64,000 bases of DNA from Pseudomonas sp. ML2-2023-3 (GTDB lineage: Bacteria > Pseudomonadota > Gammaproteobacteria > Pseudomonadales > Pseudomonadaceae): the NCBI RefSeq assembly GCF_037055275.1, contig NZ_CP146343.1, positions 2,700,501-2,764,500 on the forward strand, read 5' to 3'. The stretch's first letter is position 1. The number at the start of each line of letters is the position of its first letter. Position numbers and translations under genes: made by a program. Positions 9,929-60,931 of the stretch are shown one piece after another. The notes beneath the pieces are model-generated. The model made no database searches and was not told the origin of the DNA. It saw nothing but the letters and a program-made list of their open reading frames with translations.

Positions 9929-11260
9929 TCAGGTGTTCGACACTTCCCCGGCCGGCAGCTGTTCCTTGCTGCGCCAGTGCGGCAGCGAGTTCCAGTAGCG
10001 CTCGCCCTTGGCGTCGTCGTACATGCCTTCCCAACGGGAAATTACCAGTACCGCCAGGGCGTTACCGATCACGTTCAGGGCCGTACGGGCCATGTCCATC
10101 ACACGGTCAACACCGGCGATAAAGGCCAGACCTTCCAGCGGGATACCCACGCTGCCCAGCGTGGCCAGCAGCACCACGAAGGACACGCCCGGCACACCGG
10201 CGATGCCTTTGGAGGTGACCATCAGGGTCAATACCAGCAGCAGTTGCTGGCTGAGCGACAGGTCGATGCCATACAGCTGAGCGATAAAGATTGCCGCGAT
10301 GCTCTGGTACAGGGTCGAACCGTCAAGGTTGAACGAGTAGCCGGTCGGTACCACAAAGCTGCAAATCGCTTTCGGTGCGCCGTAGGCTTCCATCTTCTCG
10401 ATCACGCGCGGCAGCACGGTTTCGGAGCTGGCGGTGGAGTAAGCCAGTACCAGTTCGTCCTTGAAGATGCGCATCAGCTTGATCACGGAGAAGCCGAACA
10501 GCTTGGCGATCAGGCCCAGTACCGCAAAGGCGAAGAACAGGATGGCCGCGTAAACCAGCACCACCAGCTTGGCCAGTGGCACCAGGGAGGCGAAGCCGAA
10601 GTTGGCGACAGTCACGGCGATCAGGGCAAACACACCGATTGGCGCGTAGTTCATGATCATGTGAGTGACTTTGAACATCGACTCGGACACGCCCTGGAAG
10701 GTTTTCACCAGCGGGTCGCGCAGTTCGGCGTTCAGGCTCGACAAACCGAGACCGAAGAGCACCGAGAAGAAGATGATCGGCAGCATCTCACCGCGAGCCA
10801 TGGCCGCGAAGATGTTGGATGGGATCAGGTTGAGGATGGTCTCGATGAACGCATGTTCATGGGTGACCTCAGCCGCCGTGGCCGCATACTTCGAGATATC
10901 GACTGTGCTCAGGGTGCTCATGTCGATCCCGGCACCTGGCTGGAACACGTTGGCCAGCACCAGGCCGACCAAAATCGCAATGGTGGTGACCACCTCGAAG
11001 TAAATGATGGTTTTAAAACCGATACGACCGAGTTTCTTCGCATCTCCCACGCCTGCAATCCCGACAACCAGTGAAGAAATCACGATTGGGATTACGATCA
11101 TCTTGATCAGACGGATAAAGATATCGCCGGCAGGTTGCAGAACGTTACTGATCCACCAGGCCTTTTCAGCACTGAAATGGTTGAGCAGCGCGCCGATTGC
11201 AATCCCGAGGACCAGACCAATCAGGATCTGCCAGGCGAGGCTAAGTTTTGCCTTCTTCAT
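9929..11260 (-). CDS. gltP: Glutamate/aspartate:proton symporter GltP
   Basis: 443-residue member of the dicarboxylate/amino acid:cation symporter family (SLC1 type), close to E. coli GltP along its whole length. Signature elements are the serine-rich AYSTASSETVLPRV (hairpin 1), the transport motif NLDGSTLYQ, and the second re-entrant loop SKGIAGVPGVSFVVL. It imports glutamate and aspartate with protons across the inner membrane. DctA is related, but the N-terminus (SLAWQILIGLVLGI) and C-terminus favour GltP. It is monocistronic, with a strong hairpin after its stop. Confidence 0.93.
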   Translation of the reverse strand: MKKAKLSLAWQILIGLVLGIAIGALLNHFSAEKAWWISNVLQPAGDIFIRLIKMIVIPIVISSLVVGIAGVGDAKKLGRIGFKTIIYFEVVTTIAILVGLVLANVFQPGAGIDMSTLSTVDISKYAATAAEVTHEHAFIETILNLIPSNIFAAMARGEMLPIIFFSVLFGLGLSSLNAELRDPLVKTFQGVSESMFKVTHMIMNYAPIGVFALIAVTVANFGFASLVPLAKLVVLVYAAILFFAFAVLGLIAKLFGFSVIKLMRIFKDELVLAYSTASSETVLPRVIEKMEAYGAPKAICSFVVPTGYSFNLDGSTLYQSIAAIFIAQLYGIDLSLSQQLLLVLTLMVTSKGIAGVPGVSFVVLLATLGSVGIPLEGLAFIAGVDRVMDMARTALNVIGNALAVLVISRWEGMYDDAKGERYWNSLPHWRSKEQLPAGEVSNT

Positions 11261-11867
11261 ATTATTTTTTTTCTACCTTTACTTCAGTTTGATGTAGGTA
11301 ATTGCCTGAACAGGAACGTTCATTTACCGAAAAATCTGTGTAAATAGCCGGGATAGATCGCTTGGAAGTGGTGCTTGTCGCTCACTGGCAGACCGCTCAG
11401 GCGGCGCGACTATTCCAATGCCGGAGGGCGCCGTCTAATGCTGTAAATGCCTACCCTATGCTCAATGTGCATGGCATTAATCAAAAAAACGCATGGTTTA
11501 AAGCTGTTCGAATACGCCATTTCGGGAGGCATAAGTGCCGTGCACCGGCCCTTGCAGAAGACGTGACGCGTTTTTTGGCAGGAGAAATGAAGGGCTGGAT
11601 CCAGGGGGTGTTTGAGCAAGCAACCTCGGCATAAAGGCGCAATTTATTCTGGTCGGATTTCGACGGGCTGGCGTGCATTCGCCACCTGAAGCCATCAAGG
11701 AGAGGGTTTTGCTATCTGGAGGTGCATGAGGAATGGGTGAAGCATCAGGAGCACTTTGAAAAAGCCTGACACTGAGTTGCAAAGTTGTGACTTAAGCGAT
11801 TCCTGACTTTGTGGGAGCGAGCAAGGTCGCTCCCACACTTGAACAGCATTGCGACATTGAGCCTGGT
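11261..11867. other. Long intergenic region between gltP and the glycine-zipper gene
   Basis: About 600 bp. The left part carries the gltP promoter region: AT-rich, with ATATTATTTTTTTTC just upstream of its start. The middle has only weakly coding-like open frames with no ribosome site or recognisable protein. The right end contains a REP hairpin (11811-11836). I see no RNA gene. Confidence 0.5.
11811..11836. repeat. REP hairpin downstream of the glycine-zipper gene
   Basis: GTGGGAGCGA and TCGCTCCCAC form a perfect 10-bp stem around the loop GCAAGG. This is the common Pseudomonas REP core. It lies 32 bp past the stop codon of the minus-strand gene and has no T-tract there, so it more likely stabilises the mRNA end than terminates it. 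Confidence 0.7.
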
Positions 11868-12296
11868 TTATCGGCGGTGCTTGTTCTTCTTGTTTTTGTT
11901 TTTCTTGTGATGCTTGCCACCGGAGTTGTGCTTGCTGCCATCGTCGGCAAGATTGTTGCCTATCGCCCCGCCAGCGGCACCGCCAAGACCCGCGCCGATG
12001 GTGGAGCCAGTAGAGCCTCCCAGTCTGTTGCCGATGACCGATCCGCCGGCCGATCCGAGACCGCCACCAATGGCGGCTTCGGTTTTGCTGCCTCGTGGCG
12101 CGCCGATAGCACTCCCTGCAGCGCCACCGACCCCGGCACCAACGGCGGCCCCCGTGGACCCCCCCAGCTGTTGGCCCACGATATTACCCAACGCGCCGCC
12201 AACACCGCCTCCGACAGCGGCGGTTCCGTCACCGGCAGCCATTGCTCCTTGTGCAAACAAAAGGCCCAGAACTAGCGCAGGTAGTGTCATTCGCAT
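11868..12296 (-). CDS. Exported glycine-zipper protein with a basic tail
   Basis: 142 residues. A signal peptide (LPALVLGLLFAQGAMA) is followed by about 90 residues in which glycine recurs every few positions, for example VGGGVGGALGNIVGQQLGG and GGGLGSAGGSVIGNRLGG. This glycine-zipper pattern favours close helix packing in membranes. The last 25 residues are rich in Lys, His and Asn (GGKHHKKNKNKKNKHRR). Similar proteins are common in Pseudomonas, but their role is not established. It is probably periplasmic or outer-membrane associated; function unknown. Confidence 0.72.
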   Translation of the reverse strand: MRMTLPALVLGLLFAQGAMAAGDGTAAVGGGVGGALGNIVGQQLGGSTGAAVGAGVGGAAGSAIGAPRGSKTEAAIGGGLGSAGGSVIGNRLGGSTGSTIGAGLGGAAGGAIGNNLADDGSKHNSGGKHHKKNKNKKNKHRR

Positions 12297-12523
12297 CTTA
12301 TATACCTCAATGGGCAGTAATCAGTGCACCCGCTACATTAGGGATGCCTGAGAATATAGACGGGGCGATAACCCCCAAGTTCTATGTTGGCAACCACTGT
12401 GGCTGATAAAGCTGTAACAAGCTATTGCGGCGACAGGTTCCAGTCTTTGTGGCAGCGTTGCTCTTGAGTGAACAGCAATAGCGCAAGGTGAGGGATTTAT
12501 GTCAGCCGTATGAAAGCCTCCCT

Positions 12524-12730
12524 TCACTTGACCTCAAGTGCGGCCTGAATCTGATCAGCATACTTGCTCAGCCGATTGAGCTCTGATTGAAGCTGCCCGG
12601 CACTGCTTGAATTTAGAACCTTGGACTGGATCAAGGTTAAAGCCGCGGCAACAGCCAGTTCTCGTTGGCTCTGCGGGCTTGCGGCGCCAAAGGGGGTATC
12701 TCCCCTCAGGCCTTTGAAGTGCTCAGACAT
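12524..12730 (-). CDS. Small helical protein of unknown function
   Basis: 68 residues starting at MSEHFKGLRGD, chosen over an in-frame start at 12757 because AAGGAGAA lies just before the ATG at 12730. The second half is helical and amphipathic (LQSELNRLSKYADQIQAALE). No signal peptide or membrane segment. I do not recognise the family. Confidence 0.62.
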   Translation of the reverse strand: MSEHFKGLRGDTPFGAASPQSQRELAVAAALTLIQSKVLNSSSAGQLQSELNRLSKYADQIQAALEVK

Positions 12731-13081
12731 ACTGTTCTCCTTATTTCTGATCCGCATTTCACTTTTTCCGACAACTTTATCCAGTGTAGAAGGATCGGTG
12801 CCCGCGTGAAGTGCTCAGAACCCGGATCCCGGTCCATCCGTCTGCCTGCACCAGGCCGGGGCAGTCGGGTCGGAGTATTGGTGATTTACACAGCGTCAGC
12901 AGCGCCAAATATAAATCCTGATTCGCGTCAATTAAATGGCTAATAAGTTTATTTGTTACGTGTTTACCAAGATACTAATCCTATTTCGTTCAATTTATTG
13001 ACGATGCCATTGTGATGGCTTATTTTGGCGCGCTGCGGCTGGTCATGGGTCGTTAACAGTCAGAAAGCAGGAAGCCTTCCT
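12731..13081. other. Regulatory region upstream of the cellulose operon
   Basis: About 350 bp with no gene. It becomes AT-rich from about 12900 and holds the likely wss promoter at 12998-13026. In P. fluorescens SBW25 this region is bound by regulators such as FleQ and AmrZ; I could not assign their sites here by eye. Confidence 0.5.
12998..13026 (+). promoter_or_regulatory. Candidate sigma-70 promoter of wssA
   Basis: TTGACG (12998-13003), a 17-bp spacer, and TATTTT (13021-13026). The expected transcript start near 13033 would leave a leader of about 50 bases before the wssA ATG at 13082. The -35 is close to consensus and the -10 is weak, which fits a regulated promoter. Confidence 0.45.
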
Positions 13082-14287
13082 ATGAGCCACAAAGACGACA
13101 TATCAAATCTATTCAGTAGATTTGGCGCGACTTCAGACAGCTATCACGAGTTCGAAACCCCGTTCGACTACCCGTGCGCAGCACCGCAAAAGATGCCGCT
13201 GCCTGCCGAGCCAGCGCCTTTGCCTGAAGTTGTGGCTCAAGTAATCGAGAACATGGCGGCCGAGCCGAAAATTGAACAGGCGCCATTCCGGTCGTTACCG
13301 TTTTCGGTGGTTACGCCGGGAGCGCAACCCGTCATGCAATCTGCAATGCCAGTCGTTGAGTCAGCGCGCCCCCAGCCTGAAGCACCATTGATGACCTCCG
13401 GGGACGTTGCAACCCCGTTGCGTAATCTGCTCGCCGAAGTCGCCCTTGCCCGCCAGGCCGAGATGCACGCCCAGGCACAGCTTGGGGCTCGTGTGCCGAA
13501 GTGCAAGGCACATATCGTGGCGCTGGTTTCGGCCAAGGGTGGCGTAGGCAAGTCAACTCTGGGCGCCGGGTTGGCCAGCAGCTTGTGTCTGGACGCATGC
13601 AAAGCCATCGCCATCGATCTTGACCCGCAAAATGCGTTGCACTACCACCTCGGGATTGAATCCGGTGTGAGGGGCATGGGCACTACGAGCGAGGATGGCA
13701 CCACCTGGGCCGACAAACTTCAGCAGGGTTTCGACGGTGCTCAAGTGCTGCCGTACGGCGTATTGAGCGATGACGAACGTTGTGCCCTGGAACGGGACAT
13801 GAGCCATGATCGCCATTGGTTGGCCCGGCAGCTGGCTCGCCTGAATCTGGATGAAAACGACGTGGTGATTCTGGACACACCGACCGGCCGTTCGATGTAT
13901 CTGGAGCAAGCGCTGGATGTGGCTGATCAAGTGATCGTAGTCACCACCGCCGACGCTGCCAGCTTTGTTGCCCTGGATCAGATGGATCGCCTGATGGGCT
14001 CCGTCCCCACCCGTCCTGAGTCCCCGGCCTGCAACTACGTGGTCAATCAGTTCGATGCCACCCGCGAGTTTTCGCGGGACATGCTTGAGGTCCTCAAACG
14101 TCGTTTGGGCGGGCAGATGCTCGGAGTCGTTGCACTGGATAACACCCTGGGCGAGTCGCTGGCCTATGGTCGTAACCCGCTGGCTTCACCGAACGCATCT
14201 GCAGCCTGCCAGGATATGGCATGGCTGGGTAAACAACTCAAGGCCGGGTTTGAGAACGGCTCTGCTACAGCGATGTCCGCGCTGTGA
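13082..14287 (+). CDS. wssA: Cellulose synthesis ATPase WssA (BcsQ/MinD-like) with BcsP/BcsR-like N-terminus
   Basis: 401 residues. Residues 1-20 (MSHKDDISNLFSRFGATSDS) resemble the short BcsP/BcsR-type segment. A low-complexity linker of about 120 residues rich in Pro, Ala and Glu follows, then a ParA/MinD ATPase with the deviant Walker A motif SAKGGVGKST near residue 150 and VVILDTPTG as Walker B. BcsQ-type ATPases help assemble or localise the cellulose synthase at the pole. ATG at 13082 is preceded by AGGAAG. wssB starts at its stop codon (GTGA). Confidence 0.88.
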   Translation: MSHKDDISNLFSRFGATSDSYHEFETPFDYPCAAPQKMPLPAEPAPLPEVVAQVIENMAAEPKIEQAPFRSLPFSVVTPGAQPVMQSAMPVVESARPQPEAPLMTSGDVATPLRNLLAEVALARQAEMHAQAQLGARVPKCKAHIVALVSAKGGVGKSTLGAGLASSLCLDACKAIAIDLDPQNALHYHLGIESGVRGMGTTSEDGTTWADKLQQGFDGAQVLPYGVLSDDERCALERDMSHDRHWLARQLARLNLDENDVVILDTPTGRSMYLEQALDVADQVIVVTTADAASFVALDQMDRLMGSVPTRPESPACNYVVNQFDATREFSRDMLEVLKRRLGGQMLGVVALDNTLGESLAYGRNPLASPNASAACQDMAWLGKQLKAGFENGSATAMSAL

Positions 14288-16506
14288 TCAAGACCAGCAC
14301 TGAGCCGCCCGTTGTACAAAACCGTCTGCAACGTTGGGCGCAGTCCGTGGCTGATCGTATTGAACGATGGCCCGTTGTGGCACGCCGCGCGCTGACCATT
14401 GGCACGATAGCGTTCTGCACGCTTGTGGGCTTATTGATCGTCACCGCCCCGTTTGATTTCTATGCCCAGTGCATCTTTGCACTCGGTTGCTTTGGTGCGG
14501 CGCTGATATTGCGCAGGATCCCTGGCCGGCTGACCATCCTGATCATGATCTGCCTGTCGCTGACTGCTTCGCTGCGCTACATGTACTGGCGTCTGACGGC
14601 GACCCTGGACTTCGATGAGTGGATCGACATCGCGTTCGGCTACGGCCTGGTACTGGCCGAGCTTTATGCCTTGGTGGTGCTGATCTTCGGTTACTTGCAG
14701 ACGGCATGGCCGCTGCGCCGCCAACCGGTATTGCTCAAAAGCCCGCCCAGCGAGTGGCCGGTAGTTGACGTGTTCATCCCGTCCTACAACGAAGCCCTCG
14801 ATATTGTGAAGTTGACTGTCTTTGCCGCCCAGGCCATGGACTGGCCGCAGGACAAGCTGCGGGTCCACGTGCTCGATGACGGGCGTCGCGAAGACTTTCG
14901 CGAGTTCTGCGAGCAGATCAATGTCAACTACATCACCCGTGACAACAACCGGCATGCGAAGGCCGGGAATCTCAACGAAGCGTTGCAGATCACCAGCGGT
15001 GAGTTCGTGGCGTTTTTCGATGCCGATCACGTGCCGACCCGTTCGTTTTTGCAAGTGAGCATTGGCTGGTTTCTGAAAGACCCGAAGCTGGCGATGCTGC
15101 AAACGCCGCACTTTTTCTTTTCCCCGGACCCGTTCGAAAAGAACCTCGATACCTTCCGCTCGGTACCGAACGAAGGCGAGTTGTTCTATGGCCTGGTCTA
15201 GGACGGCAATGACCTGTGGAACGCCACATTCTTCTGTGGCTCATGTGCTGTGATCCGGCGCAAGCCGCTGATGGAAATTGGCGGGGTCGCAGTAGAAACC
15301 GTGACCGAAGATGCCCACACCGCGCTCAAACTCAATCGCGCCGGCTACAACACGGCGTATCTGGCCATTCCCCAGGCGGCGGGCCTGGCGACGGAAAGTC
15401 TGTCGAGCCACATCAGCCAGCGCATTCGCTGGGCCCGGGGCATGGCGCAGATTTTCCGCACCGACAATCCGTTGTTCGGCAAGGGTCTGAACCTGGGGCA
15501 GCGCCTGTGCTACCTCAACGCGATGCTGCACTTCTTCTATGGTTTGCCGCGCCTGGTATTTCTGACGGCGCCGCTGGCCTTCCTGTTTTTCGACGCGCAG
15601 ATTTTCCACGCCGCGGGGTTGATGATCATGGCCTATGCATTGCCCCATATCTTCCATGCCAGCCTGACCAACTCCACCATTCAGGGGCGCTTCCGCCACT
15701 CGTTCTGGAACGAGGTCTACGAGACCGTACTGGCCTGGTACATCATGGGGCCGGTGCTGGTGGCGCTGGTCGATCCCAAGCATGGTGGTTTCAACGTGAC
15801 CGACAAGGGCGGGATCATCGACGAGAAATTCTTCGACTGGAAACTCGCCCGCCCATACATCGTGCTGTTGACCCTCAACCTCGCGGGCATGGCCTACGGG
15901 ATCGCGCGGCTGGCAATGGGGGAGGAGGGCGCCACAACCACGGTGCTGATCAACCTGATGTGGACGCTCTACAACGTCATCATCACCAGTGCTGCAGTGG
16001 CAGTGGCCAGCGAAACCCGACAGGTACGTGCTGAGCCGCGGGTAGCAGCCAAATTGCCTGTGCGCCTGACCTGTGCCGATGGCCGTGTGATAGAGGGTGT
16101 AACCCAGGACTTTTCGCAAAAAGGCATGGGTTTGATTTTGCCGGAAGGCGTCAGCTTGCCTCAGGGTGAGCAGGTACAGATTTCCCTGTTTCGCAATCAA
16201 CACTCGAGTGTGTTCCCGGCAGTGGTCGTGTTCAGTCGCGGCGAGTTGGCGGGCGTGCAGTTTGATGCCCTGACCTTGCGTCAGCAGAGTGACCTGGTAC
16301 GCCTTACATTCTCCCGCGCCGACACCTGGGCTTCGACCTGGGGCAGCGGGCAGGTCGATACCCCGCTTGTCGCCTTGCGTGAGGTCGGTCGTATCGGCCT
16401 GCGCGGTATCCACGAACTTTTCAAAGCCTCGGCCATGGAAGTGCGCAGCTTGCTGCGCCGTCGCCGCGTCACCCCTTCCACGCTAGACAATGTCCTGGAC
16501 AAGTGA
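14284..16506 (+). pseudogene. wssB: Cellulose synthase catalytic subunit WssB (BcsA), interrupted by an in-frame TAG
   Basis: Read through codon 306, this is a 740-residue BcsA: N-terminal membrane helices, a family 2 glycosyltransferase domain with FFDADHVP (UDP-glucose/metal site, about residue 244), TED (about 340) and QRIRW (about 379), further helices, and a C-terminal PilZ domain for c-di-GMP (RQVRAEPR and DFSQKG, about 580). The TAG at 15199-15201 falls in FYGLV*DGNDLWNATFFCG, where relatives have Gln (CAG), so one C-to-T change explains it. The frame is otherwise intact on both sides. The truncated product would lack TED, QxxRW and PilZ and should be inactive. GTG start overlaps wssA. 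Confidence 0.9.
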
Positions 16507-18773
16507 TGAATTCAACGTCTTCAGCCTTCGCCGCCTTGCGCGATCTGCGCCGCGCGCTGGCCCGCCTGACGTGCGCCTTGCTGGCTTTCAGCGCTGGCGC
16601 TGCCAGTGCCCAAACCCTGTCTGCGGCCACGGCGCCCGGAGCGAAAAGCTACACCGTTACCCTCAAGCAATTGGGCCGCAATTATCCGATGAACCTGCGT
16701 GGAGTGGAGGCGACAGACAGCGTCAGCTTCGATGTGCGGGCCGACTCGATCGTCACCGGCGCCAGGCTGAACCTGCAGTACTCCTACTCCCCGGCGCTGC
16801 TGGCGGAGCTGTCGCAAATCAACGTGCTGGTCAACGATGAAGTGGCCGCAAGCCTGCCATTGCCCAAGGACAAGGCCGGGCAACTGCAGCAACAGGTTGT
16901 AGAGATCCCGGCTCATCTGATTACCGAGTTCAACCGCCTGAGCCTGCAATTTATCGGGCACTACACCATGAGCTGCGAGGACCCCCAGCACTCCAGCCTG
17001 TGGGCCAAGATCAGCAATGCTTCGGAGTTGGGCATCGACGTATCGCCGCTGGCCTTGCCTGACGACCTGTCGATTATCCCGCTGCCGTTTTTTGATCGTC
17101 GCGATGCCCGTCCCCTGGACTTGCCGTTCGTGTTCGCCGCTGCGCCCGACAATGCCACGCTGGAAGCCGCCGGAGCCCTGTCGTCGTGGTTGGGTGCCCA
17201 GGCCAGCTATCGTGGTGCGCGGTTCTCATCGGGTTACAACCGGATTCCGGCCAGCGGCAATGCCGTGGTGCTGGTCAGTGGCCCGGATGCCCTTCAGATC
17301 GACAGCCTGAGCCTGCCGCCCGCCAAGGGCCCGACCCTGACCGTAATGACCAACCCCAATGACGCCAATGGCAAGTTGCTGGTCGTCAGCGGTCGCGACG
17401 GAGCTGAGCTCAAGCGCGCAGCAACGGCGTTGGTGCTGGGCAATCAGGCCTTGTCGGGCAATAGCGTTGTCATCGACCGCCTGGATGTGGTGCAGCCACG
17501 CAAACCCTATGACGCACCGAACTGGTTGCCCAGTGATCGCCCGGTAAAACTGGGTGAGTTGTTGCCAGCCAAGGAACTGGCGGTGTCCGGCTACAACCCG
17601 GGCGACATTACCGTACCGCTCAACTTTGCCCCGGACCTGTTTACCTGGCGCGAAGGCGGTGCGCCGTTGAACCTCAAGTACCGTTACACGCCTCAAGAGA
17701 AGTCCAACAACTCATCGTTCATCATCAGTTTCAACGATGCGCTGATTCAGTCGCAGAACCTGCCGTCCCAGGACAAGCTTCCGAGCGGCGTACTCAGCGC
17801 GCTGAAGTCCGACGACAGCCTTGGCCGCGAAACCACCGTGATGCTGGCGTTGAACTCGACTGCCCTGCAGTCACGGCTGCAGCTGCGATACATGTTCGAT
17901 TACATCAAGCAGGGGGAATGTAACGACATCATCATCGACAACATGCGTGGGGCCATTGACCCCGAGTCGACCATCGATGTGAGCGGCTACGACCACTTTA
18001 TCGCCATGCCCAACCTTGGCGTGTTCAAGGATGCCGGATTCCCGTTCACCCGCCTGGCCGACTTGTCGCAAACAGCCGTGGTGTTGCCGGATAACGCAGG
18101 CACCGCGGACCTGGATGCCTACCTGACTGTACTTGGTCGTTTCGGCAGCTCCACGGGTTACCCGGCCACCGGCGTACAGGTGATCCAGGCCGCGCAGGTT
18201 GGGAGCGCTGCGGACAAGGACTTGCTTGTGCTGGCATCCGGTGCCAATCAGCCGTTGCTGACGCAATGGGCTGATCGTCTGCCCGCTGCCGATGGCGAAG
18301 GACTGCAGAGTTTTCATCTGTCCGACCTGCCAATGCGGGTACGTGACTGGTTCAGCCCCGACCCTGAAGCCAATCTGCGCAGAACCCGGCTGGCGATGGC
18401 ATTTTCCGGTGGTGCGCGCAGTACCTACCTCACCGGATTCGAGTCACCGCTCAAAAACGGTCGCAGCGTCGTGGTGATCGCCAGTGGTCAGCCCCAGGGC
18501 CTGGCCGACGCGACCAATGCCCTGATCGGTGGTGAGGATTACACCCAGTCGATCCAGGGCAGCCTGGTGGTGGTACGCGGTAAAAATATCGAGCCACTGG
18601 TTGCGGACGAGCAGTACTACGTCGGTAGCCTGGGCCCGATCAAATACCTGCAATGGCTGATGTCGCGCCACGTGGTACTGGCGCTGATACTGACCGGCCT
18701 GGGTGTGATCCTGCTCAGCGGTCTGGCCTATCTGGCATTGCGCGCGCGTGCCAACAAGCGTCTGGGCGGCTGA
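16506..18773 (+). CDS. wssC: Cellulose synthase regulatory/periplasmic subunit WssC (BcsB)
   Basis: About 755 residues. Signal peptide (ALLAFSAGAASAQ), a long periplasmic region made of alternating carbohydrate-binding and flavodoxin-like domains, and a single C-terminal membrane helix (VVLALILTGLGVILLSGLAYLAL) that anchors it next to the synthase. BcsB guides the nascent glucan through the periplasm. The ATG at 16506 overlaps the wssB stop (TGATG); a GTG one codon earlier is possible. The gene looks intact despite the stop in wssB. Confidence 0.9.
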   Translation: MNSTSSAFAALRDLRRALARLTCALLAFSAGAASAQTLSAATAPGAKSYTVTLKQLGRNYPMNLRGVEATDSVSFDVRADSIVTGARLNLQYSYSPALLAELSQINVLVNDEVAASLPLPKDKAGQLQQQVVEIPAHLITEFNRLSLQFIGHYTMSCEDPQHSSLWAKISNASELGIDVSPLALPDDLSIIPLPFFDRRDARPLDLPFVFAAAPDNATLEAAGALSSWLGAQASYRGARFSSGYNRIPASGNAVVLVSGPDALQIDSLSLPPAKGPTLTVMTNPNDANGKLLVVSGRDGAELKRAATALVLGNQALSGNSVVIDRLDVVQPRKPYDAPNWLPSDRPVKLGELLPAKELAVSGYNPGDITVPLNFAPDLFTWREGGAPLNLKYRYTPQEKSNNSSFIISFNDALIQSQNLPSQDKLPSGVLSALKSDDSLGRETTVMLALNSTALQSRLQLRYMFDYIKQGECNDIIIDNMRGAIDPESTIDVSGYDHFIAMPNLGVFKDAGFPFTRLADLSQTAVVLPDNAGTADLDAYLTVLGRFGSSTGYPATGVQVIQAAQVGSAADKDLLVLASGANQPLLTQWADRLPAADGEGLQSFHLSDLPMRVRDWFSPDPEANLRRTRLAMAFSGGARSTYLTGFESPLKNGRSVVVIASGQPQGLADATNALIGGEDYTQSIQGSLVVVRGKNIEPLVADEQYYVGSLGPIKYLQWLMSRHVVLALILTGLGVILLSGLAYLALRARANKRLGG

Positions 18774-18779
18774 CAGGGC

Positions 18780-20018
18780 ATGAGTTTCTTCGCGATCTTT
18801 CGCAATAAAACCTCAACGAGGCGCCTGCATACGGCGCTTCGTTTGCTTGCCTGTGCTTTCGTAACGTTCACGCTGACGCCTGCGGTGGCTCAAGACGAGG
18901 CGTGCAAAAATGCTCAGTGGCCGCTTTGGCAGACCTATGCCTCGCATTTTGTGCAGGCTGACGGCCGGATGCTGGAGTCCAGTGCGCAGGTCAATCAAAG
19001 CTCTTCCGAAGGCCAATCCTACGGGATGCTTTTCGCACTGATAGGCAACGATCAGGCGCGCTTTGAAAAGCTGTGGCAATGGACCTTGGCCAACATGGCA
19101 GGTGCCGATGTGAGCAAGCGCCTGCCGGGCTGGCTGTGGGGGCAGGGCAAGGACGGCACATGGCAATTGCAGGACGCGAACTCGGCGTCCGATTCGGATT
19201 TGTGGATCGCTTATTCGCTGCTGGAGGCAGCGCGTTTGTGGCAGCGGCCGGACTATCGCGAAGCTGCGTTGCAGCTGCTTGCAAACATAGAAACCCAACT
19301 GATAGTGAGCTTGCCCGGTTTGGGCAAAATGGTGTTGCCGGGGCCACAGGGTTTCGTGCAGCCCGACCACCTGTGGCGGTTGAATCCCAGCTACCTGCCA
19401 TTGCCGCTGCTGCGTCGACTGGCCAAGGAGTCACCGGCCGGACCTTGGAAAGAAATAGCCGAAAACACGGTGAAAATGATCAAGGCTTCCAGCCCCAAAG
19501 GCTATGTGGCCGACTGGGTTGGTTACCGTGCCACCGGGCCGAAAGCCGGTTTGTTCGTGGTTGATCCGATCACAGGCGAGCAGGGCAGTTATGACGCGAT
19601 TCGCGTGTACCTGTGGGCAGGCATGACGCCCAAGTCCGATCCACTGGCAGCCCCCTTGCTGGCGATGCTGGACGGTATGTCAAACAGTACTGCGTCCACC
19701 GGTATTCCACCGGAAAAAGTCCAGGTCATCAGCGGTGCACTCGAGGGTCAGGGACCGTTCGGGTTCTCGGCTGCGCTGATCCCGTACTTCCAGACCAAAG
19801 GTCAGCCCTGGCTGGCACAGGCCCAGCAACGTCGAACCGTACAAGCGTTGGACAAGGCACTGGCCACTGTCGGCGGCGAGCGTACCGAACCTTTGTATTA
19901 CAACCTCATGCTCAGCTTGTTCGCACTCGGCTGGGCTGAAAATCGTTTTCAGTTTCGTGATGACGGAACACTCAAATTGTCTTGGGAGACGTCATGCGTC
20001 CGCACCGCCACTCGCTAG
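18780..20018 (+). CDS. wssD: Periplasmic endo-1,4-beta-glucanase WssD (BcsZ, GH8)
   Basis: 412 residues with a signal peptide (LLACAFVTFTLTPAVA). The glycoside hydrolase family 8 catalytic acid is the Glu of NQSSSEGQSYGML (about residue 76), and the Asp of NSASDSDLWIAYSLLEAARLW supplies the other catalytic residue. BcsZ trims cellulose in the periplasm and affects its amount and texture. It lies seven bases after wssC. The 3' end overlaps the start of wssE. Confidence 0.92.
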   Translation: MSFFAIFRNKTSTRRLHTALRLLACAFVTFTLTPAVAQDEACKNAQWPLWQTYASHFVQADGRMLESSAQVNQSSSEGQSYGMLFALIGNDQARFEKLWQWTLANMAGADVSKRLPGWLWGQGKDGTWQLQDANSASDSDLWIAYSLLEAARLWQRPDYREAALQLLANIETQLIVSLPGLGKMVLPGPQGFVQPDHLWRLNPSYLPLPLLRRLAKESPAGPWKEIAENTVKMIKASSPKGYVADWVGYRATGPKAGLFVVDPITGEQGSYDAIRVYLWAGMTPKSDPLAAPLLAMLDGMSNSTASTGIPPEKVQVISGALEGQGPFGFSAALIPYFQTKGQPWLAQAQQRRTVQALDKALATVGGERTEPLYYNLMLSLFALGWAENRFQFRDDGTLKLSWETSCVRTATR

Positions 20019-23000
20019 CCATAGGTTTTTTAACCGCCATGATCAGCACTGCCGTCCACGCCGACACAAGGGACGTGCAATCGCAGTTGGTCGAGCAGGG
20101 CCAGTACTGGCAGGGCCGTGACAATTCACTACGAGCTGCTGAAGCTTGGGAAAAAGTGTTGCGTCTGGACCCCAATCAAGTCGACGCCCTTTACGGTATG
20201 GGCCTTGCCAGCATCAAGCAGAAAAAGTCTGCGCAAGCCAGGCAATACCTGGAACGCCTGCAGGCTTTGTCGCCCCGCCCTTGGTTGGCTGCGCAGCTGG
20301 AACAGGACCTGGCCCTTACCGAGCCGCAGAACATCGCGCTTCAAGCCGAGGCTCGCCGTCTGGTCGATAGCGACCAGCGTGACCAGGCGACTCAGGTGTT
20401 TCGCAAACTCTTTGCCGGGCGCACACCGTCAGGCACTTTAGGCCGAGAGTATTACAACAACCTTGCATTCAACCCTGCAGGCTGGCCGGAAGCTCGCAAA
20501 GGCATGGAGCGTTTGCTGCACGAAACGCCGAATGACTCGATTCTGGCGCTGTTTCTTGCCAAGCAATTGGTTCGTCACGAAGACACTCGTCCCGAAGGTA
20601 TTCGTGCCCTGGCCAAACTGTCGACGCGGCCCGACATCGGTGGTGACGCTGACGAGAGCTGGCGTCTGGCGCTGGTGTGGTCCGGTCCTCCGAGCGCTGC
20701 CCAGGCACCTTTGTTCGAAGCTTTTTTGAAGGCTCATCCGGATGATCAGGAAATACGCGATCTACTGAACAAAGGTAAATCGAAAGCCAGCACTGCTGGC
20801 CGGGTAGCGAGCTGGCAACCAGATCCACTGGTAGAACGTGGATTGCAAGCCCTTGAAAAAGGCGATCAGGCAGGTGCCGAGCAAGCTTTCGCCGCACGCC
20901 TGAAAAACAAGGCCAATGACCCTGATGCACTGGGTGGTCTTGGTGTTGTGCGCCAACAACAGAATCGTCTGGTTGAGGCTGAGCAGTTGCTCAACCGTGC
21001 CATTGGCAATGGGGGGGCGCGATGGAAGCCCGCATTGGACAACGTGCGCTACTGGGCCTTGCTGCAACAGGCGCGCAACCAGGCCAAGGCTCAACCCGAC
21101 AAGGCCCGGCAGAACATTGCACAGGCCATGCGTCTTAACCCTAAAGGCGTCGAAGCGCGCCTGGCCCTGGCAGATCTCCAGGCCCAGAACGGTCAACTGG
21201 ATGAAGCCCAGGCCAGTTATCGCCAAGTATTGAGTGTGCAGCGAGATAATGCGCAGGCCGTACAAGGGCTTGTGAATGTGCTGTCGCAATCGGGGCAGGC
21301 CGATGAGGCATTGCGCTTGCTCGATACCCTGACTGCAGCCCAGCAGGCCGAAATGGGCGGCGGTGGTCGGTTGCGTGCGCTGCGCTCCACCCAGGCGGCT
21401 GCATTGGCCGAACAGCGGGGTGATACCCGTGGTGCGCAACAGGCGTTGGTGCAAGCCGTCAAGGACGACCCGGATAACGTTTGGACCCGTTTTGACCTCT
21501 CCCGCCTTTACCTCAAGACCGGCGAGCCACAAAAAGCCCGAGACCTGATCGACAGCTACCTCAAGGCGCATCCGACCGACGTTGACGCGCTTTACACCAG
21601 CGCTTTGCTCTCGGTGGAAATGGAGCAGTGGGACGCTGCCCAGGCCGCCATCAGTCGCATTCCTGCGGGCCGCCGCACCGCCGATATGAGCGAGCTGGCC
21701 GACCAGATTACCCTGACGGTGCAAGTCAAACTCGCCGCTACCATGGCCAAGCGCGGCCAGCGTCAGGAAGCCCTGGCCCTGCTTGATCGTTTGCAACCGA
21801 TGGCCAGCCGCAGCCCGGACCGGATGGCGACGCTGGCGTCGGCCTATGTTGACACCGGTGACGCCACACGTGCGTTGACCATGATGCGCGACGTCATTAA
21901 CCAGACACCGACACCGTCCGCCGACCTGATGTTGCAGTACGCCAATCTGCTGTTGAAGACGGGCAATGATGCTCAGGTCAATTCGATTCTGCGGGGCCTG
22001 CAAAATCAGCCAATGAGCCTTGCTACACGCAAGCGCTTCGATGATCTGCTTTACCAGTATCGTATTCGTCAGGCAGACCTGCTGCGTGAAGGCGGTGATC
22101 TGGCAGGCGCTTATGACACGTTGGCACCGGCGCTGGCGTCACGCCCCGGGGATGCGGGTGCGGTTTCGGCACTGGCGCGCATGTATGTCAGCAGCGGTGA
22201 CAATGCCAAGGCATTCGAGCTGTACAAACCCTTGCTGCAGCGTCAGCCAAACGACCCGCAGATCTTGCTCAATGCAGCGGACGCCGCCGTTCTGGCCCGT
22301 GATAACGGCTACGCCGAACGTGCGCTGGAGCAGTTCGTGAAGCTGCAAAACTACGACCCGCAGTCCTTGACCGAAGCGGCACGGATCTACCGCAGCATGG
22401 GCAAGTCTGCTCAAGCCACCCACCTGTTGCGCAAGGCCGTAGACATCGAGCAGACCGAGAAAAAACGCAGCCTGGCGACGCAGGCTGCCGGTACGGGCGC
22501 GGCGCCCAACCCTTTTGCAGGTTTGTCGGGGCCGGGTAATCAGGTTGGCCGCGGGGCGATCGACGGGATTCCTGCTCCGGCGCAAGCCGTGCTGGATTCG
22601 GCATCGTATAGCGCAGGCAGCAATTCGTTATTGCCTCAAGACGTCTATCCAGGTCAGCAACAAGCCCGCGTGGCAGCCGCAATCCCGAGCCGTGCGGCCG
22701 TGCCCTCCGGGCGATTTGGCAATGCCGGGGCCAATCCTTTCGCGCCGCAAGGCACGGTCAATGTAGCGGTAGATCAGGCCAGTTCTGCCCAGCGTGCACT
22801 GGACAGCATCCTTCAGGAACGCAGTGCTTACGTGACTCAGGGTGTGACCGTGCGCACCAATGACAGCGAGCCGGGCCTGGGCAAGATGACCGATATCGAG
22901 ACGCCGCTGGAGATTAATTTCCCGGCAGGTGACAACCGTCTCGCTGTGCGTGTGACGCCGGTATCCCTGAACGCAGGACGGGTGGGTGTGTATGCCGCTG

Positions 23001-23926
23001 AACGCTTCGGCAGTGGCAACGCGTCAACCGAAGGTATTGGTGCCCAGCGTGAAAGTGGTGTGGGTGTGAGCGTTGGCTTCGCTCGTCCGGATGAAGGCAT
23101 CAAGGCTGACATCGGCACTACGCCAATCGGCTTTCAATACAGCACCGTCGCCGGTGGTGTGAGTGTGGATCGCCCGCTCGCCAGCAATTCCAATGTGCGC
23201 TATGGCGTCAACGTCTCGCGCCGTCCGGTAATCGACAGCGTGACGTCGTTCGCCGGTACTACCGATGAACGTAGCGGGCAGTCGTGGGGCGGTGTGACGG
23301 CTAACGGCGGTCGTGGCCAACTGAGCTACGACGACCAGGCGATTGGCGCCTATGGCTACGGCGCGTGGCACAAGCTGTTGGGCCATAACGTAGAGTCCAA
23401 CAGCCGTGCCGAACTGGGCGCCGGTGTTTACTGGTATCTGCAAAATGATGAAGACAGCAAGCTGACCCTCGGCCTGAGCGCCACTGGCATGAGCTTCGAC
23501 AATAACCAGAACTTCTTTACCTACGGTCACGGCGGCTATTTCAGCCCGCAAAGCTACTTTGCCCTTGGGGTGCCGGTGGCCTGGTCGCAGCGCACCGAGC
23601 GCCTCAGCTATCAGGTCAAGGGTTCGGTGGGTGTCCAGTACTCCCATCAGGCGGGTGCGGACTACTTCCCTGGCGACAGCACGCTGCAAGCTGAAAACGA
23701 CCAGCGCTACTCCAGCGAGAGCAAGGCTGGGGTTGGTTACAGTCTCTCCGCAGCCGGTGAGTACAAGTTTGGTTCAAACTTTTTTCTGGGGGCCAATCTT
23801 GGTCTGGACAATGCCCAGGACTACCAGCAAGTCACGGGTGCCATGTACTTGCGTTACATGTTTGAGGACATGAACGGCCCGATGGCGCTGCCCGTCAGCC
23901 CTTACAGTTCCCCTTATTCCAATTGA
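19994..23926 (+). CDS. wssE: Cellulose export protein WssE (BcsC: TPR scaffold and outer-membrane barrel)
   Basis: About 1310 residues. A signal peptide (FLTAMISTAVHA) is followed by roughly 750 residues of tetratricopeptide repeats (for example DPNQVDALYGMGLASIKQKK and NAQAVQGLVNVLSQSGQADEA), a linker, and a C-terminal beta-barrel ending YLRYMFEDMNG of the BCSC_C type. It forms the outer-membrane channel for cellulose. The ATG at 19994 follows GGGAG; a TTG 12 bases upstream is less likely. It overlaps the wssD end by 25 bp. Confidence 0.92.
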   Translation: MRPHRHSLAIGFLTAMISTAVHADTRDVQSQLVEQGQYWQGRDNSLRAAEAWEKVLRLDPNQVDALYGMGLASIKQKKSAQARQYLERLQALSPRPWLAAQLEQDLALTEPQNIALQAEARRLVDSDQRDQATQVFRKLFAGRTPSGTLGREYYNNLAFNPAGWPEARKGMERLLHETPNDSILALFLAKQLVRHEDTRPEGIRALAKLSTRPDIGGDADESWRLALVWSGPPSAAQAPLFEAFLKAHPDDQEIRDLLNKGKSKASTAGRVASWQPDPLVERGLQALEKGDQAGAEQAFAARLKNKANDPDALGGLGVVRQQQNRLVEAEQLLNRAIGNGGARWKPALDNVRYWALLQQARNQAKAQPDKARQNIAQAMRLNPKGVEARLALADLQAQNGQLDEAQASYRQVLSVQRDNAQAVQGLVNVLSQSGQADEALRLLDTLTAAQQAEMGGGGRLRALRSTQAAALAEQRGDTRGAQQALVQAVKDDPDNVWTRFDLSRLYLKTGEPQKARDLIDSYLKAHPTDVDALYTSALLSVEMEQWDAAQAAISRIPAGRRTADMSELADQITLTVQVKLAATMAKRGQRQEALALLDRLQPMASRSPDRMATLASAYVDTGDATRALTMMRDVINQTPTPSADLMLQYANLLLKTGNDAQVNSILRGLQNQPMSLATRKRFDDLLYQYRIRQADLLREGGDLAGAYDTLAPALASRPGDAGAVSALARMYVSSGDNAKAFELYKPLLQRQPNDPQILLNAADAAVLARDNGYAERALEQFVKLQNYDPQSLTEAARIYRSMGKSAQATHLLRKAVDIEQTEKKRSLATQAAGTGAAPNPFAGLSGPGNQVGRGAIDGIPAPAQAVLDSASYSAGSNSLLPQDVYPGQQQARVAAAIPSRAAVPSGRFGNAGANPFAPQGTVNVAVDQASSAQRALDSILQERSAYVTQGVTVRTNDSEPGLGKMTDIETPLEINFPAGDNRLAVRVTPVSLNAGRVGVYAAERFGSGNASTEGIGAQRESGVGVSVGFARPDEGIKADIGTTPIGFQYSTVAGGVSVDRPLASNSNVRYGVNVSRRPVIDSVTSFAGTTDERSGQSWGGVTANGGRGQLSYDDQAIGAYGYGAWHKLLGHNVESNSRAELGAGVYWYLQNDEDSKLTLGLSATGMSFDNNQNFFTYGHGGYFSPQSYFALGVPVAWSQRTERLSYQVKGSVGVQYSHQAGADYFPGDSTLQAENDQRYSSESKAGVGYSLSAAGEYKFGSNFFLGANLGLDNAQDYQQVTGAMYLRYMFEDMNGPMALPVSPYSSPYSN

Positions 23927-23943
23927 TGTCCTGGAGACTTTAA

Positions 23944-24612
23944 ATGCCTTCATCTGTTCTAGCCGGTATGACCCTTCTTGTTCTTGGGGAGAGTCACATG
24001 AGCCTGGCCAATCACCTGATGGAACCACTGCACGCCAACTTGACCCAGCAAGGCGCGAATGTGCATTCGATTGGCGCGTGCGGGGCCAGCGCTGGCGATT
24101 GGCTTATCACCAAAAAAGTCGATTGTGGGGCTGAAAAAAAAGGCAACGGCAAGATTGTGATCAAGGGGCGTGATGCGACTACAACCCCAATCAAGGACTT
24201 GATTGCCGCCGACAAGCCGGACCTGGTGGTGCTTGTGATTGCCGACACCATGGCCTCGTACGACAAGCCGGTATTTCCCAAGGCCTGGGCGTGGCAGAAC
24301 GTGTCTGCACTGGCCAAGGAAATCACCGCCAACGGTGCCAAATGCGCATGGGTAGGCCCGGCGTGGGGCAAAGAAGGCGGCATGTACAAGAAAAACGATG
24401 CGCGCACCAAACTGATATCCGCGTTTTTGGCAACCAACGTCGCGCCTTGTACCTACATCGACTCCCTGGAGTTCTCCAAGCCCGGGCAGTGGGTGACCAC
24501 TGACGGCCAGCATTTTACTGTTGCGGGCTACAAGTCCTGGGCCAATGCCATCGGCAATGCGTTGGGCAAACTGCCACCTGAAGCGGTCAGCGCCAAGGGA
24601 GAGAAGAAGTGA
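23944..24612 (+). CDS. wssF: SGNH-like cellulose acetylation protein WssF
   Basis: 222 residues. The N-terminus LLVLGESHMS fits the first block of SGNH hydrolases (GxSx with variation), and DGQHFTVAGY near the C-terminus fits the last block with its Asp-x-x-His pair. In SBW25, WssF works with WssGHI to acetylate cellulose, probably presenting acyl groups or transferring them in the periplasm. No obvious cleavable signal peptide is seen. It follows wssE by 17 bp, and wssG overlaps its stop. Confidence 0.85.
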   Translation: MPSSVLAGMTLLVLGESHMSLANHLMEPLHANLTQQGANVHSIGACGASAGDWLITKKVDCGAEKKGNGKIVIKGRDATTTPIKDLIAADKPDLVVLVIADTMASYDKPVFPKAWAWQNVSALAKEITANGAKCAWVGPAWGKEGGMYKKNDARTKLISAFLATNVAPCTYIDSLEFSKPGQWVTTDGQHFTVAGYKSWANAIGNALGKLPPEAVSAKGEKK

Positions 24613-25271
24613 TTCGTCCACTGACGGGTGCGATGACACTGTTATGTAGCATGTGCACCCTGGCTGCCGATTTTGCCCTGTATCCCACCGGCCCCAGCCA
24701 GGACGCAGCCTTCATCCGCTTCGTCAACGCCACCACGGCGCCCCTGGACGTCATCGGCCAGGCAGGACAGCCGCCGTTGCGCCTTGAAGTGGCGCAGCCG
24801 GCGTCGCTATTGTTCCCGGTGGACTCGACCAGTCCGGTCAAGGGTTCTCTGGTCAGTGGCGGGCAACAGCTGGCGCTGGATCTCAAGGTTGAGCCCGGGG
24901 AGTTCGCGACGATTGTTGTCGTGTCGCAGGGTGCGGGTATCGAGCAAGTCGCCGTGCGTGAGACACCTGACGATTTCAACGGCCTCAAGGCTTCGCTGGC
25001 GTTCGTTAACGTCGATAAATCCTGCAGCGATGCCAGTCTGCGTCCTGCCGGGCGCAGCGCCGATCTGTTCAAGGCGGTGCCCGTCGCCAGCCTGCAACGG
25101 CGCTCGATCAATCCGGTGAACCTTTCGGTGCAACTGGTGTGCGCCAACGCCAATGTGGGTGCTGCGCTGGATTTGGGCATGCTCAAGGCGGGGGAACGCT
25201 ACAGCGTGCTGCTGGTGCCTTCTGCCAGCGGGCCACGTCTTTTGAGCGCAACGGACACTCTGTCCCACTGA
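24609..25271 (+). CDS. wssG: Periplasmic cellulose acetylation protein WssG (AlgF-like)
   Basis: 220 residues with a signal peptide (TGAMTLLCSMCTLAAD) and two similar beta-rich halves, as in the alginate acetylation protein AlgF. By analogy it relays acetyl groups between the membrane acetyltransferase and the polymer. The GTG start overlaps the wssF stop codon (GTGA). Confidence 0.85.
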   Translation: MIRPLTGAMTLLCSMCTLAADFALYPTGPSQDAAFIRFVNATTAPLDVIGQAGQPPLRLEVAQPASLLFPVDSTSPVKGSLVSGGQQLALDLKVEPGEFATIVVVSQGAGIEQVAVRETPDDFNGLKASLAFVNVDKSCSDASLRPAGRSADLFKAVPVASLQRRSINPVNLSVQLVCANANVGAALDLGMLKAGERYSVLLVPSASGPRLLSATDTLSH

Positions 25272-25289
25272 TCGGATTCTGCCGCTGCC

Positions 25290-26705
25290 ATGGTCTTCGC
25301 CTCACTCGAGTTCCTGACGCTGTTTCTGCCAGCCTTCATGCTGATTTACGCCCTGGGCAAGCCCCAGTGGCGTAACGTCATTCTGTTGATCGGCAGCTGG
25401 TTGTTCTATGGCTGGCTGAACCCGATGTTCCTCGCGTTGCACGTGGCGTTGACCATCGTTGCCTGGGTCGGCGGGCTGCTGATTGATCGCTCCCGCGAAG
25501 ACTCAAAGGGCAGGGTGCGGCTGTTGATTGCGCTGATCGTGTTCAACACCGCAGTGCTGTGCTGGTACAAGTACGCCAATATCCTGGCTGCAACCTGGAT
25601 GGAATGGATTACCTGGCCGGGCGCGATGCCCCTGGAGTGGCAGCGGGTGGCGCTGCCGGCAGGGCTGTCGTTTATCGTGCTGCAGGCCATTTCCTATCTG
25701 GTGGATGTGCACCGCCATACGGTGCCGGTGGAGCGCAGCTTCATCAACTACGCCACCTATATTTCGATGTTCGGCCACTCCATAGCAGGTCCGATCATTC
25801 GCTATGACTGGGTGCGTCGTGAGCTGACCCGGCGCTATTTCGACTGGCAGAATTTTTCTCTGGGCGCACGCCGTTTCATGGTCGGCATGTGCATGAAAGT
25901 GCTGGTGGCAGATACTCTGTCGCCATTGGTGGATGTGGCGTTCCATCTGGATAATCCGTCCTTTGTCGACGCCTGGATCGGTTGCCTGGCCTACTCGTTG
26001 CAACTGTTTTTCGACTTCGCGGGCTACAGCGCCATGGCCATCGGCCTCGGCCTGATGCTGGGCTTTCACTTTCCGGAAAACTTCAACCAGCCTTACCTGG
26101 CCAGCAGCATTCAGGATTTCTGGCGGCGCTGGCACATGTCCTTGTCCAGCTGGTTGCGCGACTACCTGTATATCGCCCTGGGCGGTAACCGTAACGGGGC
26201 CTGGAAGACCTATCGCAATCTGTTCCTGACCATGGCCATTGCCGGGCTTTGGCATGGCGGCGATAGCTGGAATTACCTGCTGTGGGGGGCCGCTCACGGG
26301 GTGGCGCTGTGTGTGGACCGGTTGTGGTCGCGATCGAACCTGCCGAGTATTCCTCCACTGTTCTCCCATACCCTGACACTGCTGTTTGTGTTCATGGCCT
26401 GGACCCTGTTCCGTGCGCCGGATTTTGCATCGGCCCTGACTATGTATGCCGGCCAGTTCGGTTTGCACGGGTTTGCCTTGGGCGACGCGTTGGCCGTGAC
26501 GCTGCGCTCGGCTCACGGCCTGGCGGCGCTGCTCGGCGTGGCATGCATTATCGCGCCGCTGTTCAAGGACCGTGTTGAGCAGCGTTTTGGTACTCAAGTG
26601 TGGTTTGTTCCTATAGCGGCCCTGTGGCCGGTGGCGGGTTTTCTGCTCTCGTTCGCGTTGATCGCGAGCCGCGAGGCGGTGCCCTTCCTCTACTTCCAGT
26701 TCTGA
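25290..26705 (+). CDS. wssH: MBOAT acetyltransferase WssH (AlgI-like)
   Basis: 471 residues with about ten membrane helices. The MBOAT signature is clear: SIQDFWRRWHMSLSSWLRDY followed by the conserved histidine in MAIAGLWHGGDSWNYLLWG. AlgI-type proteins move an acetyl group across the inner membrane for polymer O-acetylation. It starts 18 bp after wssG with a weak ribosome site, so coupling to upstream translation is likely, and wssI overlaps its stop (TGATG). Confidence 0.92.
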   Translation: MVFASLEFLTLFLPAFMLIYALGKPQWRNVILLIGSWLFYGWLNPMFLALHVALTIVAWVGGLLIDRSREDSKGRVRLLIALIVFNTAVLCWYKYANILAATWMEWITWPGAMPLEWQRVALPAGLSFIVLQAISYLVDVHRHTVPVERSFINYATYISMFGHSIAGPIIRYDWVRRELTRRYFDWQNFSLGARRFMVGMCMKVLVADTLSPLVDVAFHLDNPSFVDAWIGCLAYSLQLFFDFAGYSAMAIGLGLMLGFHFPENFNQPYLASSIQDFWRRWHMSLSSWLRDYLYIALGGNRNGAWKTYRNLFLTMAIAGLWHGGDSWNYLLWGAAHGVALCVDRLWSRSNLPSIPPLFSHTLTLLFVFMAWTLFRAPDFASALTMYAGQFGLHGFALGDALAVTLRSAHGLAALLGVACIIAPLFKDRVEQRFGTQVWFVPIAALWPVAGFLLSFALIASREAVPFLYFQF

Positions 26706-27856: not shown

Positions 27857-27865
27857 ATCGCCGGT

Positions 27866-28582
27866 CTGTAGTCGCTGACGAGCCGTGCGAGGCTGCGTCA
27901 GGTTTGGTGCGCCACTGCGACGCAGCAGTCGTAAAGTCAGCCTCTTCGGTTTTTCAGGCACACCGCGTGTTCCGGTTTTGCGACCGCTTCGCGATCGATC
28001 GCAGCCTCGTTCTACTCGTCAGCGACTACAACAAGAGTTGGTGGCGAATCTGTAGTCGCTGACGAGCCGTGCGAGGCTGCGTCAGGTTTGGCGCGCCACT
28101 GAGACGCAGCAGTCGTAAAGTCAGCCTCCTCGGTTTTTCAGGCACACCGCGTGTTCCGGTTTTGCGACCGCTTCGCGATCGATCGCAGCCTCGTTCAACT
28201 CGTCAGCGACTACAACAAGAGTTGGTGGCGAATCTGTAGTCGCTGACGAGCCGTGCGAGGCTGCGTCAGGTTTGGTGCGCCACTGCGACGCAGCAGTCGT
28301 AAAGTCAGCCTCCTCGATTTTTCAGGCACACCGCATGTTCCGGTTTTGCGACCGCTTTGCGATCGATCGCAGCCTCGTTCAACTCGTCAGCGACTACAAC
28401 AAGAGTTGGTGGCGAATCTGTAGTCGCTGACGAGCCGTGCGAGGCTGCGTCAGGTTTGGTGCGCCACTGAGACGCAGCAGTCGTAAAGTCAGCCTCTTCG
28501 GTTTTTCAGGCACACCGCGTGTTCCGGTTTTGCGACCGCTTCGCGATCAATCGCAGCCACGCTACGCTCCTCAGCGACTACA
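27866..28582. repeat. Four tandem copies of a 184-bp unit with inverted-repeat ends
   Basis: Units begin at 27866, 28050, 28234 and 28418, exactly 184 bp apart, and differ at only a few positions. Each begins with TGTAGTCGCTGACGAG and, before an 18-base linker, ends with CTCGTCAGCGACTACA, so each unit can fold into a large hairpin. The fourth copy ends early and its right arm switches to the variant CTCCTCAGCGACTACA, matching the separate repeats at 60932 and 63395. There is no credible gene inside. The array fills the space between wssI and the converging TetR gene. Confidence 0.9.
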
Positions 28583-42335: not shown

Positions 42336-42342
42336 ACAGTCC

Positions 42343-60926: not shown

Positions 60927-60931
60927 TTTTT

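What the first reader, a model, noticed from the sequence alone, without database searches (positions are those of the whole stretch)
15199..15201. In-frame amber codon in the cellulose synthase gene of an otherwise intact wss operon
The frame of wssB is continuous from 14284 to 16506 except for one TAG at codon 306, in a stretch (FYGLV*DGNDLWNATFFCG) where BcsA proteins have Gln. All other wss genes look intact. Either this strain recently lost cellulose synthesis by one C-to-T change, or the codon is suppressed, or it is a sequencing error. A truncated product would keep the UDP-glucose DxD site but lose TED, QxxRW and PilZ.
Basis: partly seen in the sequence, partly recalled or inferred. 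Interest (0 to 1): 0.78.

Follow-up and report, generated by a model that had tools for sequence, protein, structure and literature searches.

The report
Strain-specific stop codon in cellulose synthase
One of two cellulose-making gene sets in this Pseudomonas carries a single strain-specific stop codon that should switch that set off, while a second, different cellulose gene set in the same genome looks complete, so this is most likely an ordinary recent gene loss rather than a new coding rule.

Summary
The wssB frame (14284-16506) is open except for one TAG at 15199-15201, codon 306. A sibling strain, Pseudomonas sp. NKUCC02_KPG, 99.5-99.7% identical here, has the gene uninterrupted. None of 80 named loci has a stop at this codon. 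Of 132 near-full-length BcsA-type matches listed for 398 genomes of the genus, this wssB alone has an internal stop. Among 207 single-base differences from the sibling over 50.4 kb, it is the only nonsense change I assign to a real gene. No amber-suppressor tRNA was found. Best reading: a very recent, strain-level loss of the acetylated-cellulose synthase. A base-call error cannot be excluded without reads.

A second, E. coli-type operon (bcsE, G, Q, A, B, Z, C) lies at about 3.47 Mb, these frames all open. Close relatives carry both synthases, only bcs, or only wss, so the amber fits repeated loss of one of two partly redundant systems. Nonsense changes in cellulose operons are well known (E. 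coli K-12, ST95). Ordinary, low interest.

The parts
13025..14287 (+). wssA (BcsQ/MinD-like ATPase); 420 aa from the first TTG, true start probably further downstream
   Evidence: TIGR03371 202.9 bits, above cut-off; PF06564
14284..15201 (+). wssB, part before the amber: 305 codons with DDG and DxD of the glycosyltransferase, then TAG
   Evidence: PF00535; motifs
15199..15201 (+). in-frame amber codon, codon 306 of wssB, seen in this strain only
   Evidence: absent from the sibling strain and from 80 of 80 named loci
15202..16506 (+). wssB, part after the amber: TED, QxxRW and PilZ domain; first in-frame start codon listed is GTG 15250
   Evidence: PF07238, PF13632; motifs
16503..18773 (+). 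wssC (BcsB-like); likely start ATG at 16506 overlapping the wssB stop (TGATG), which suggests translational coupling
   Evidence: NF008330 1077.6 bits; junction read
18780..20018 (+). wssD (BcsZ endoglucanase)
   Evidence: NF008305 480.9 bits
19982..23926 (+). wssE (BcsC-like TPR / outer-membrane protein)
   Evidence: NF008520 442.2 bits, below its cut-off of 858
23944..24612 (+). wssF, by position and by similarity to the gene at the same place in relatives; no family hit
   Evidence: no hit; found between wssE and wssG (or at the end of the stretch held, L040) in 13 of 13 loci looked at
24609..25271 (+). wssG (AlgF-like)
   Evidence: PF11182 43.3 bits
25290..26705 (+). wssH (MBOAT O-acyltransferase family)
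   Evidence: PF03062 99.4 bits
26600..27856 (+). wssI (AlgX-like O-acetyltransferase); the frame opens inside wssH, true start probably further downstream
   Evidence: PF16822 267.3 bits

Best explanation
wssB of this strain is a newly made pseudogene allele. One substitution turned codon 306 of the acetylated-cellulose synthase into an amber stop. Translation should end after 305 residues, before TED, QxxRW, the second membrane region and PilZ, so the fragment should not make or export the chain (inferred). The wssB-wssC junction overlaps (TGATG) and the stop is early in a nine-gene operon, so lower wssC-wssI expression by lost coupling or polarity is likely (inferred). The strain probably keeps cellulose synthesis through a separate E. 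coli-type bcs operon, whose product would carry phosphoethanolamine, since bcsG is present, rather than acetyl groups (inferred). With two partly redundant operons, loss of one is probably tolerated, as in close relatives that hold only one.
For: Stop confirmed. The sibling strain, 99.67% identical with no gap over 15,636 bases, has an open wssB. Outgroup P. fragi D12 puts the change on the window's own branch. 80 of 80 named loci have no stop at this codon; 131 of 132 listed near-full-length BcsA-type matches have no internal stop. Across wssA-wssH the two strains differ by 35 synonymous, 11 non-synonymous and 1 nonsense change, a rough dN/dS of 0.14, so the operon was under constraint until recently. 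No CTA-anticodon tRNA found. Second operon: BcsA of 867 aa, 1386.7 bits against a cut-off of 992, with BcsE, G, Q, B, Z and C each above the cut-off of at least one model. Of the 9 close genomes looked at, 6 have both synthase genes, 2 bcsA only, 1 wssB only.
Against: Only one sibling strain was available, so the frequency in the species is unknown. No reads, so an assembly or base-call error is not excluded. No expression or phenotype data. There is no second lesion in the operon; a lone stop is what both a very recent loss and an error look like. wssA alone shows as many non-synonymous as synonymous changes or more (4 to 3), too few to read.
Confidence: 0.8

Rival explanations
1. Sequencing or consensus error in this one assembly; the living strain has an intact wssB.
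For: The stop is in one assembly only and absent from the relatives examined. It is the sole nonsense change I assign to a real gene in 50.4 kb. No near-identical truncated protein is among the 120 listed of 495 hits to the 305-residue piece, the best identity being 95%; P0001, P0002 and P0004, read in full, each run on past the site.
Against: In the two long aligned blocks against the sibling (10868-28399 and 28049-61311) there is no single-base indel and one indel in all, of 16 bp; the 207 differences are 137 transitions and 70 transversions, as natural polymorphism would give. The genome is in 4 contigs and 100% complete by the tool's estimate.
Confidence: 0.13
2. The amber is read through: a suppressor or a near-cognate glutamine tRNA inserts an amino acid and enough full-length synthase is made.
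For: The rest of the gene is still conserved. Two tRNA-Gln(UUG) genes exist; misreading of UAG by near-cognate tRNAs is recalled knowledge, not tested here.
Against: 64 of 64 RF00005 matches got a non-CTA anticodon. A CTA anticodon-arm pattern gave 51 hits; 6 of the 50 chromosomal ones lie in tRNA genes already found, with other anticodons, the rest outside any (the hit on contig 3 is likewise in no RF00005 match). No relative examined keeps a stop here. The tRNA scan scored 150 of 160 candidates and shows no Ala(TGC) or Ile(GAT), so it is not exhaustive.
Confidence: 0.05
3. Gene fission: the two halves are made as separate polypeptides and work together.
For: An in-frame GTG at 15250 opens a 418-aa frame.
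Against: The halves would split the glycosyltransferase between DxD and TED/QxxRW; no relative examined shows a stop in between; no clear ribosome-binding site was seen before 15250 (by eye).
Confidence: 0.02

Closest known systems
Premature stop in bcsQ of Escherichia coli K-12 (PMC5944007, passages seen)
   Same: A single-nucleotide change makes a TAG in a cellulose operon that otherwise holds all its genes; placed in one lineage (the K-12 ancestor); a polar effect is considered.
   Different: There it is in bcsQ; here it is in the synthase gene itself, and a second cellulose operon is present (that E. coli K-12 has only one is recalled).
Repeated loss-of-function changes in bcs genes of E. 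coli ST95 and other lineages (PMC10881479, abstract and passages seen)
   Same: Truncating changes in cellulose synthase and partner genes within one species.
   Different: Clinical E. coli with many genomes and reported convergence; here one genome of a species near P. fragi and no evidence of selection.
wss operon of P. syringae DC3000 (PMC6478803, start of abstract; PMC11631409, passages)
   Same: wssABCDEFGHI for acetylated cellulose; insertions in wssB and other wss genes returned wrinkly mutants to the ancestral colony form; deleting wss did not reduce fitness of such mutants in the assays used.
   Different: Those were laboratory mutants; here the lesion is in a deposited genome, and a bcs operon is present as well.

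Membership tests
wss acetylated-cellulose operon | Synthase, BcsB-like, endoglucanase and BcsC-like core followed by alginate-type acetylation genes (AlgF-, MBOAT-, AlgX-like) | tested here: met
wss acetylated-cellulose operon | Uninterrupted synthase gene | tested here: not met
   TAG at codon 306
Recent nonsense pseudogene | Intact orthologue in sibling strain and relatives, stop derived on this branch | tested here: met
Recent nonsense pseudogene | Loss of the product in the living strain | not testable with these tools
   no reads, expression or phenotype
Amber recoding / suppression | tRNA with CUA anticodon | tested here: not met
   scan scored 150 of 160 candidates
Amber recoding / suppression | Stop conserved among relatives | tested here: not met
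   0 of 80 named loci
E. coli-type bcs operon (second copy) | bcsE, bcsG, bcsQ, bcsA, bcsB, bcsZ, bcsC present and open | tested here: met
   L165; no stop in bcsA
E. coli-type bcs operon (second copy) | small genes bcsF and bcsR | not tested
   not looked for

The most novel reading that the evidence does not exclude
Species of the P. fragi group inherited two chemically different cellulose operons (acetylated wss and phosphoethanolamine bcs) and are dropping one or the other in parallel; this amber catches such a loss at its first base, in one strain of a species whose sibling strain still has both.
Probability: 0.3. Interest if true: 0.42.

Novelty: new member of a known kind. Interest (0 to 1): 0.2.

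Why it matters
It is a clean example of a matrix gene lost by one change while a second cellulose system remains, so the strain and its sibling form a natural pair for asking what acetylated cellulose adds when another cellulose is present. It also warns against reading a broken wssB as 'cellulose-negative'. It does not point to any new coding rule.

Tried and rejected
Suppressor tRNA: RF00005 over the own genome gave 64 matches (150 of 160 candidates scored), all assigned by ARAGORN to other anticodons. A CTA anticodon-arm pattern gave 51 hits against 299 for the backward control pattern; 6 of 50 chromosomal hits lie in tRNA genes already found, with other anticodons.

Other copies of the truncated allele: a protein search with the 305-residue piece gave 495 hits, 120 listed, best identity 95%; only three were read in full and each continues past the site.

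Empty site in a relative without wss (G198): of the 20 kb fetched upstream of the shared downstream gene, one stretch matches the window (31302-32680) and tblastn found no wss gene; the other flank was not found, so the mode of loss there is open. The upstream symporter did not serve as a flank marker because relatives carry near copies elsewhere.

Plasmid collection: no match. Papers: no term hit for NKUCC02 in the three listed titles (the search matched either term, so it is weak), one unhelpful title for P. fragi with cellulose and bcsA (listing only). One search listed 9 papers; none of the titles is about a natural nonsense change in wssB; of these I looked into PMC11631409 and PMC13101516 (passages: its nonsense changes are in wspF and yfiR, and 'wss' does not occur).

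Three of 80 loci showed a '*' in the alignment (L088, L089, L094); two are near the C-terminal end (query residues 727 and 724 of 740), one at query residue 22 in a poorly matching stretch before a likely start. I did not count these as interrupted; none is at codon 306.

Full report
Observation. The frame from GTG 14284 to TGA 16506 has exactly one internal stop, TAG at 15199-15201, codon 306. The two halves match consecutive parts of the same cellulose synthase models (NF008558 positions 137-419 and 421-840; TIGR03030 5-295 and 297-709), so this is one BcsA-type gene with a stop. The neighbours read as wssA, wssC, wssD, wssE, wssF, wssG, wssH and wssI, each one open frame.

Is it confined to this strain? 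A scan of named genomes returned Pseudomonas sp. NKUCC02_KPG (L034), 15,636 bases of which align to the window without a gap at 99.67%. Its wssB is uninterrupted. Three of the 80 had a '*' somewhere else in the alignment: two near the C-terminal end, one in a poorly matching N-terminal stretch before a likely start. Searching 398 genomes of the genus with the sibling's natural protein, the output lists 132 matches with E of 1.5e-238 or better (85 at E = 0, 47 between 1.5e-238 and 8.9e-262; recounted), each covering about 660 residues or more of 740. Only the window's own wssB has a stop inside. That search scored at most two candidates per genome, holds one genome per species, and its list does not tell frameshifts.

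How recent, and is the sequence trustworthy? Against the sibling the window has 207 single-base differences in 50,428 compared bases (137 transitions, 70 transversions). The two long aligned blocks hold one indel, of 16 bp. Besides these there are repeat-number differences at 27865-28583 and a stretch, 61312-63138, that is missing from the 53.2 kb of the sibling compared and encodes a group II intron type reverse transcriptase. Comparing open frames of 150 codons or more, 12 frame differences besides wssB remain: 6 lie on the strand opposite wss genes, 2 opposite an aldehyde dehydrogenase, 2 opposite a DUF979 gene and 1 opposite an acyl-CoA dehydrogenase gene; the frames on the other strand that I tested (37697-38908 and 42004-42738) have no Pfam hit. 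The last, 43353-44003, overlaps another frame without a Pfam hit and is not settled; it is a frame open in the sibling and not in the window. With P. fragi D12 as outgroup the wssB stop falls on the window's branch. In wssA-wssH the two strains differ by 35 synonymous and 11 non-synonymous changes, about 0.14 of the neutral ratio under a rough transition-weighted count, so the operon was under constraint until very recently; on the window's own branch the polarised changes in the whole operon are 6 synonymous, 4 non-synonymous and the stop, against 11 and 4 on the sibling's, with 21 not polarised, too few to show relaxation. This fits a fresh loss, and also a single error; only reads decide.

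Suppression. No tRNA lies in the window. Of 64 RF00005 matches in the genome (150 of 160 first-look candidates scored), 64 got an anticodon, none CTA, TTA or TCA. Ala(TGC) and Ile(GAT) were not among them, so the scan is not complete. A CTA anticodon-arm pattern found no tRNA with that anticodon.

A second cellulose operon. The genome's other strong match to WssB (G000:C1:3472457-3474520, 52%) is an uninterrupted 867-aa BcsA. The 19 kb around it (L165) holds, in order, BcsE, BcsG, BcsQ, BcsA, BcsB, BcsZ and BcsC, each open and each above the curated cut-off of at least one model. The sibling has the same region at 99.4% over 15,024 bases, with two small gaps, both before bcsE. That bcs makes phosphoethanolamine cellulose is inferred from bcsG.

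Relatives. I compared rpoB in 14 genomes of my own choice, not a census. Nine are at 94% or more: G244, G256, G399 (P. fragi D12), G344, G196, G132, G198, G400 (P. psychrophila HA-4) and G401 (P. helleri). Six of these nine (G244, G256, G344, G132, G399, G400) hold both synthase genes; G196 and G198 hold only bcsA; G401 only wssB. Presence was judged by the synthase gene alone; G196, G400 and G401 are in many contigs. Loss of one of two cellulose operons thus seems to have happened more than once in this group, and the amber may be one more case. A published survey notes whole-operon duplications of cellulose operons, put down to transfer of distinct operon lineages (PMC7112194, passages).

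Mechanism. Shown: position of the stop, its absence from the relatives examined, motifs before and after it, the overlapping TGATG junction between wssB and wssC. Inferred: a 305-residue fragment without activity, reduced downstream expression, continued cellulose from bcs.

Known precedents. E. coli K-12 has a premature TAG in bcsQ by one substitution (PMC5944007, passages); ST95 and other E. coli lineages carry truncating changes in several bcs genes (PMC10881479, passages). In P. syringae wrinkly mutants, deleting wss did not reduce fitness in the assays used (PMC11631409, passages). The finding is a new instance of a known kind.

Verdict: confirmed observation, most likely a very recent strain-level wssB pseudogene in a genome with a second cellulose operon; low interest.

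Noticed in passing
window 61312-63138, frame 61674-63053 (+): A stretch encoding a group II intron type reverse transcriptase/maturase (PF00078, PF08388) is absent from the 53.2 kb of the sibling strain compared; copies of a repeat of about 350-430 bp lie on both sides (60929-61311, 63139-63560).
   Followed up: partly
L035 (P. fragi D12) 11302-18408: wssD was not found between wssC and wssE (150 bases apart), and wssE and wssF are only 46% and 57% identical to the window's while wssB, C, G and H are 87-94%. P. psychrophila (L037) and P. endophytica (L040) also have divergent wssD-wssF (46-54%), against 72-92% in L036, L038, L039 and L041. This looks like a swapped middle module of the operon.
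   Followed up: partly
window 27865-28583: Tandem repeat of 184 bp, 3.9 copies, just downstream of wssI; the alignment suggests fewer copies in the sibling strain.
   Followed up: partly
window about 36819: A 16-bp length difference between the two strains, the only indel in the long aligned blocks.
   Followed up: no
window 10868: The sibling's contig 3 starts here, inside the symporter gene 9929-11260; 9 of 9 close relatives searched carry a gene 90-95% identical to it, mostly far from wss.
   Followed up: no
genome G000 tRNA set: Ala(TGC) and Ile(GAT) were absent from the 64 tRNA matches; perhaps unscored candidates or withheld rRNA operons.
   Followed up: no
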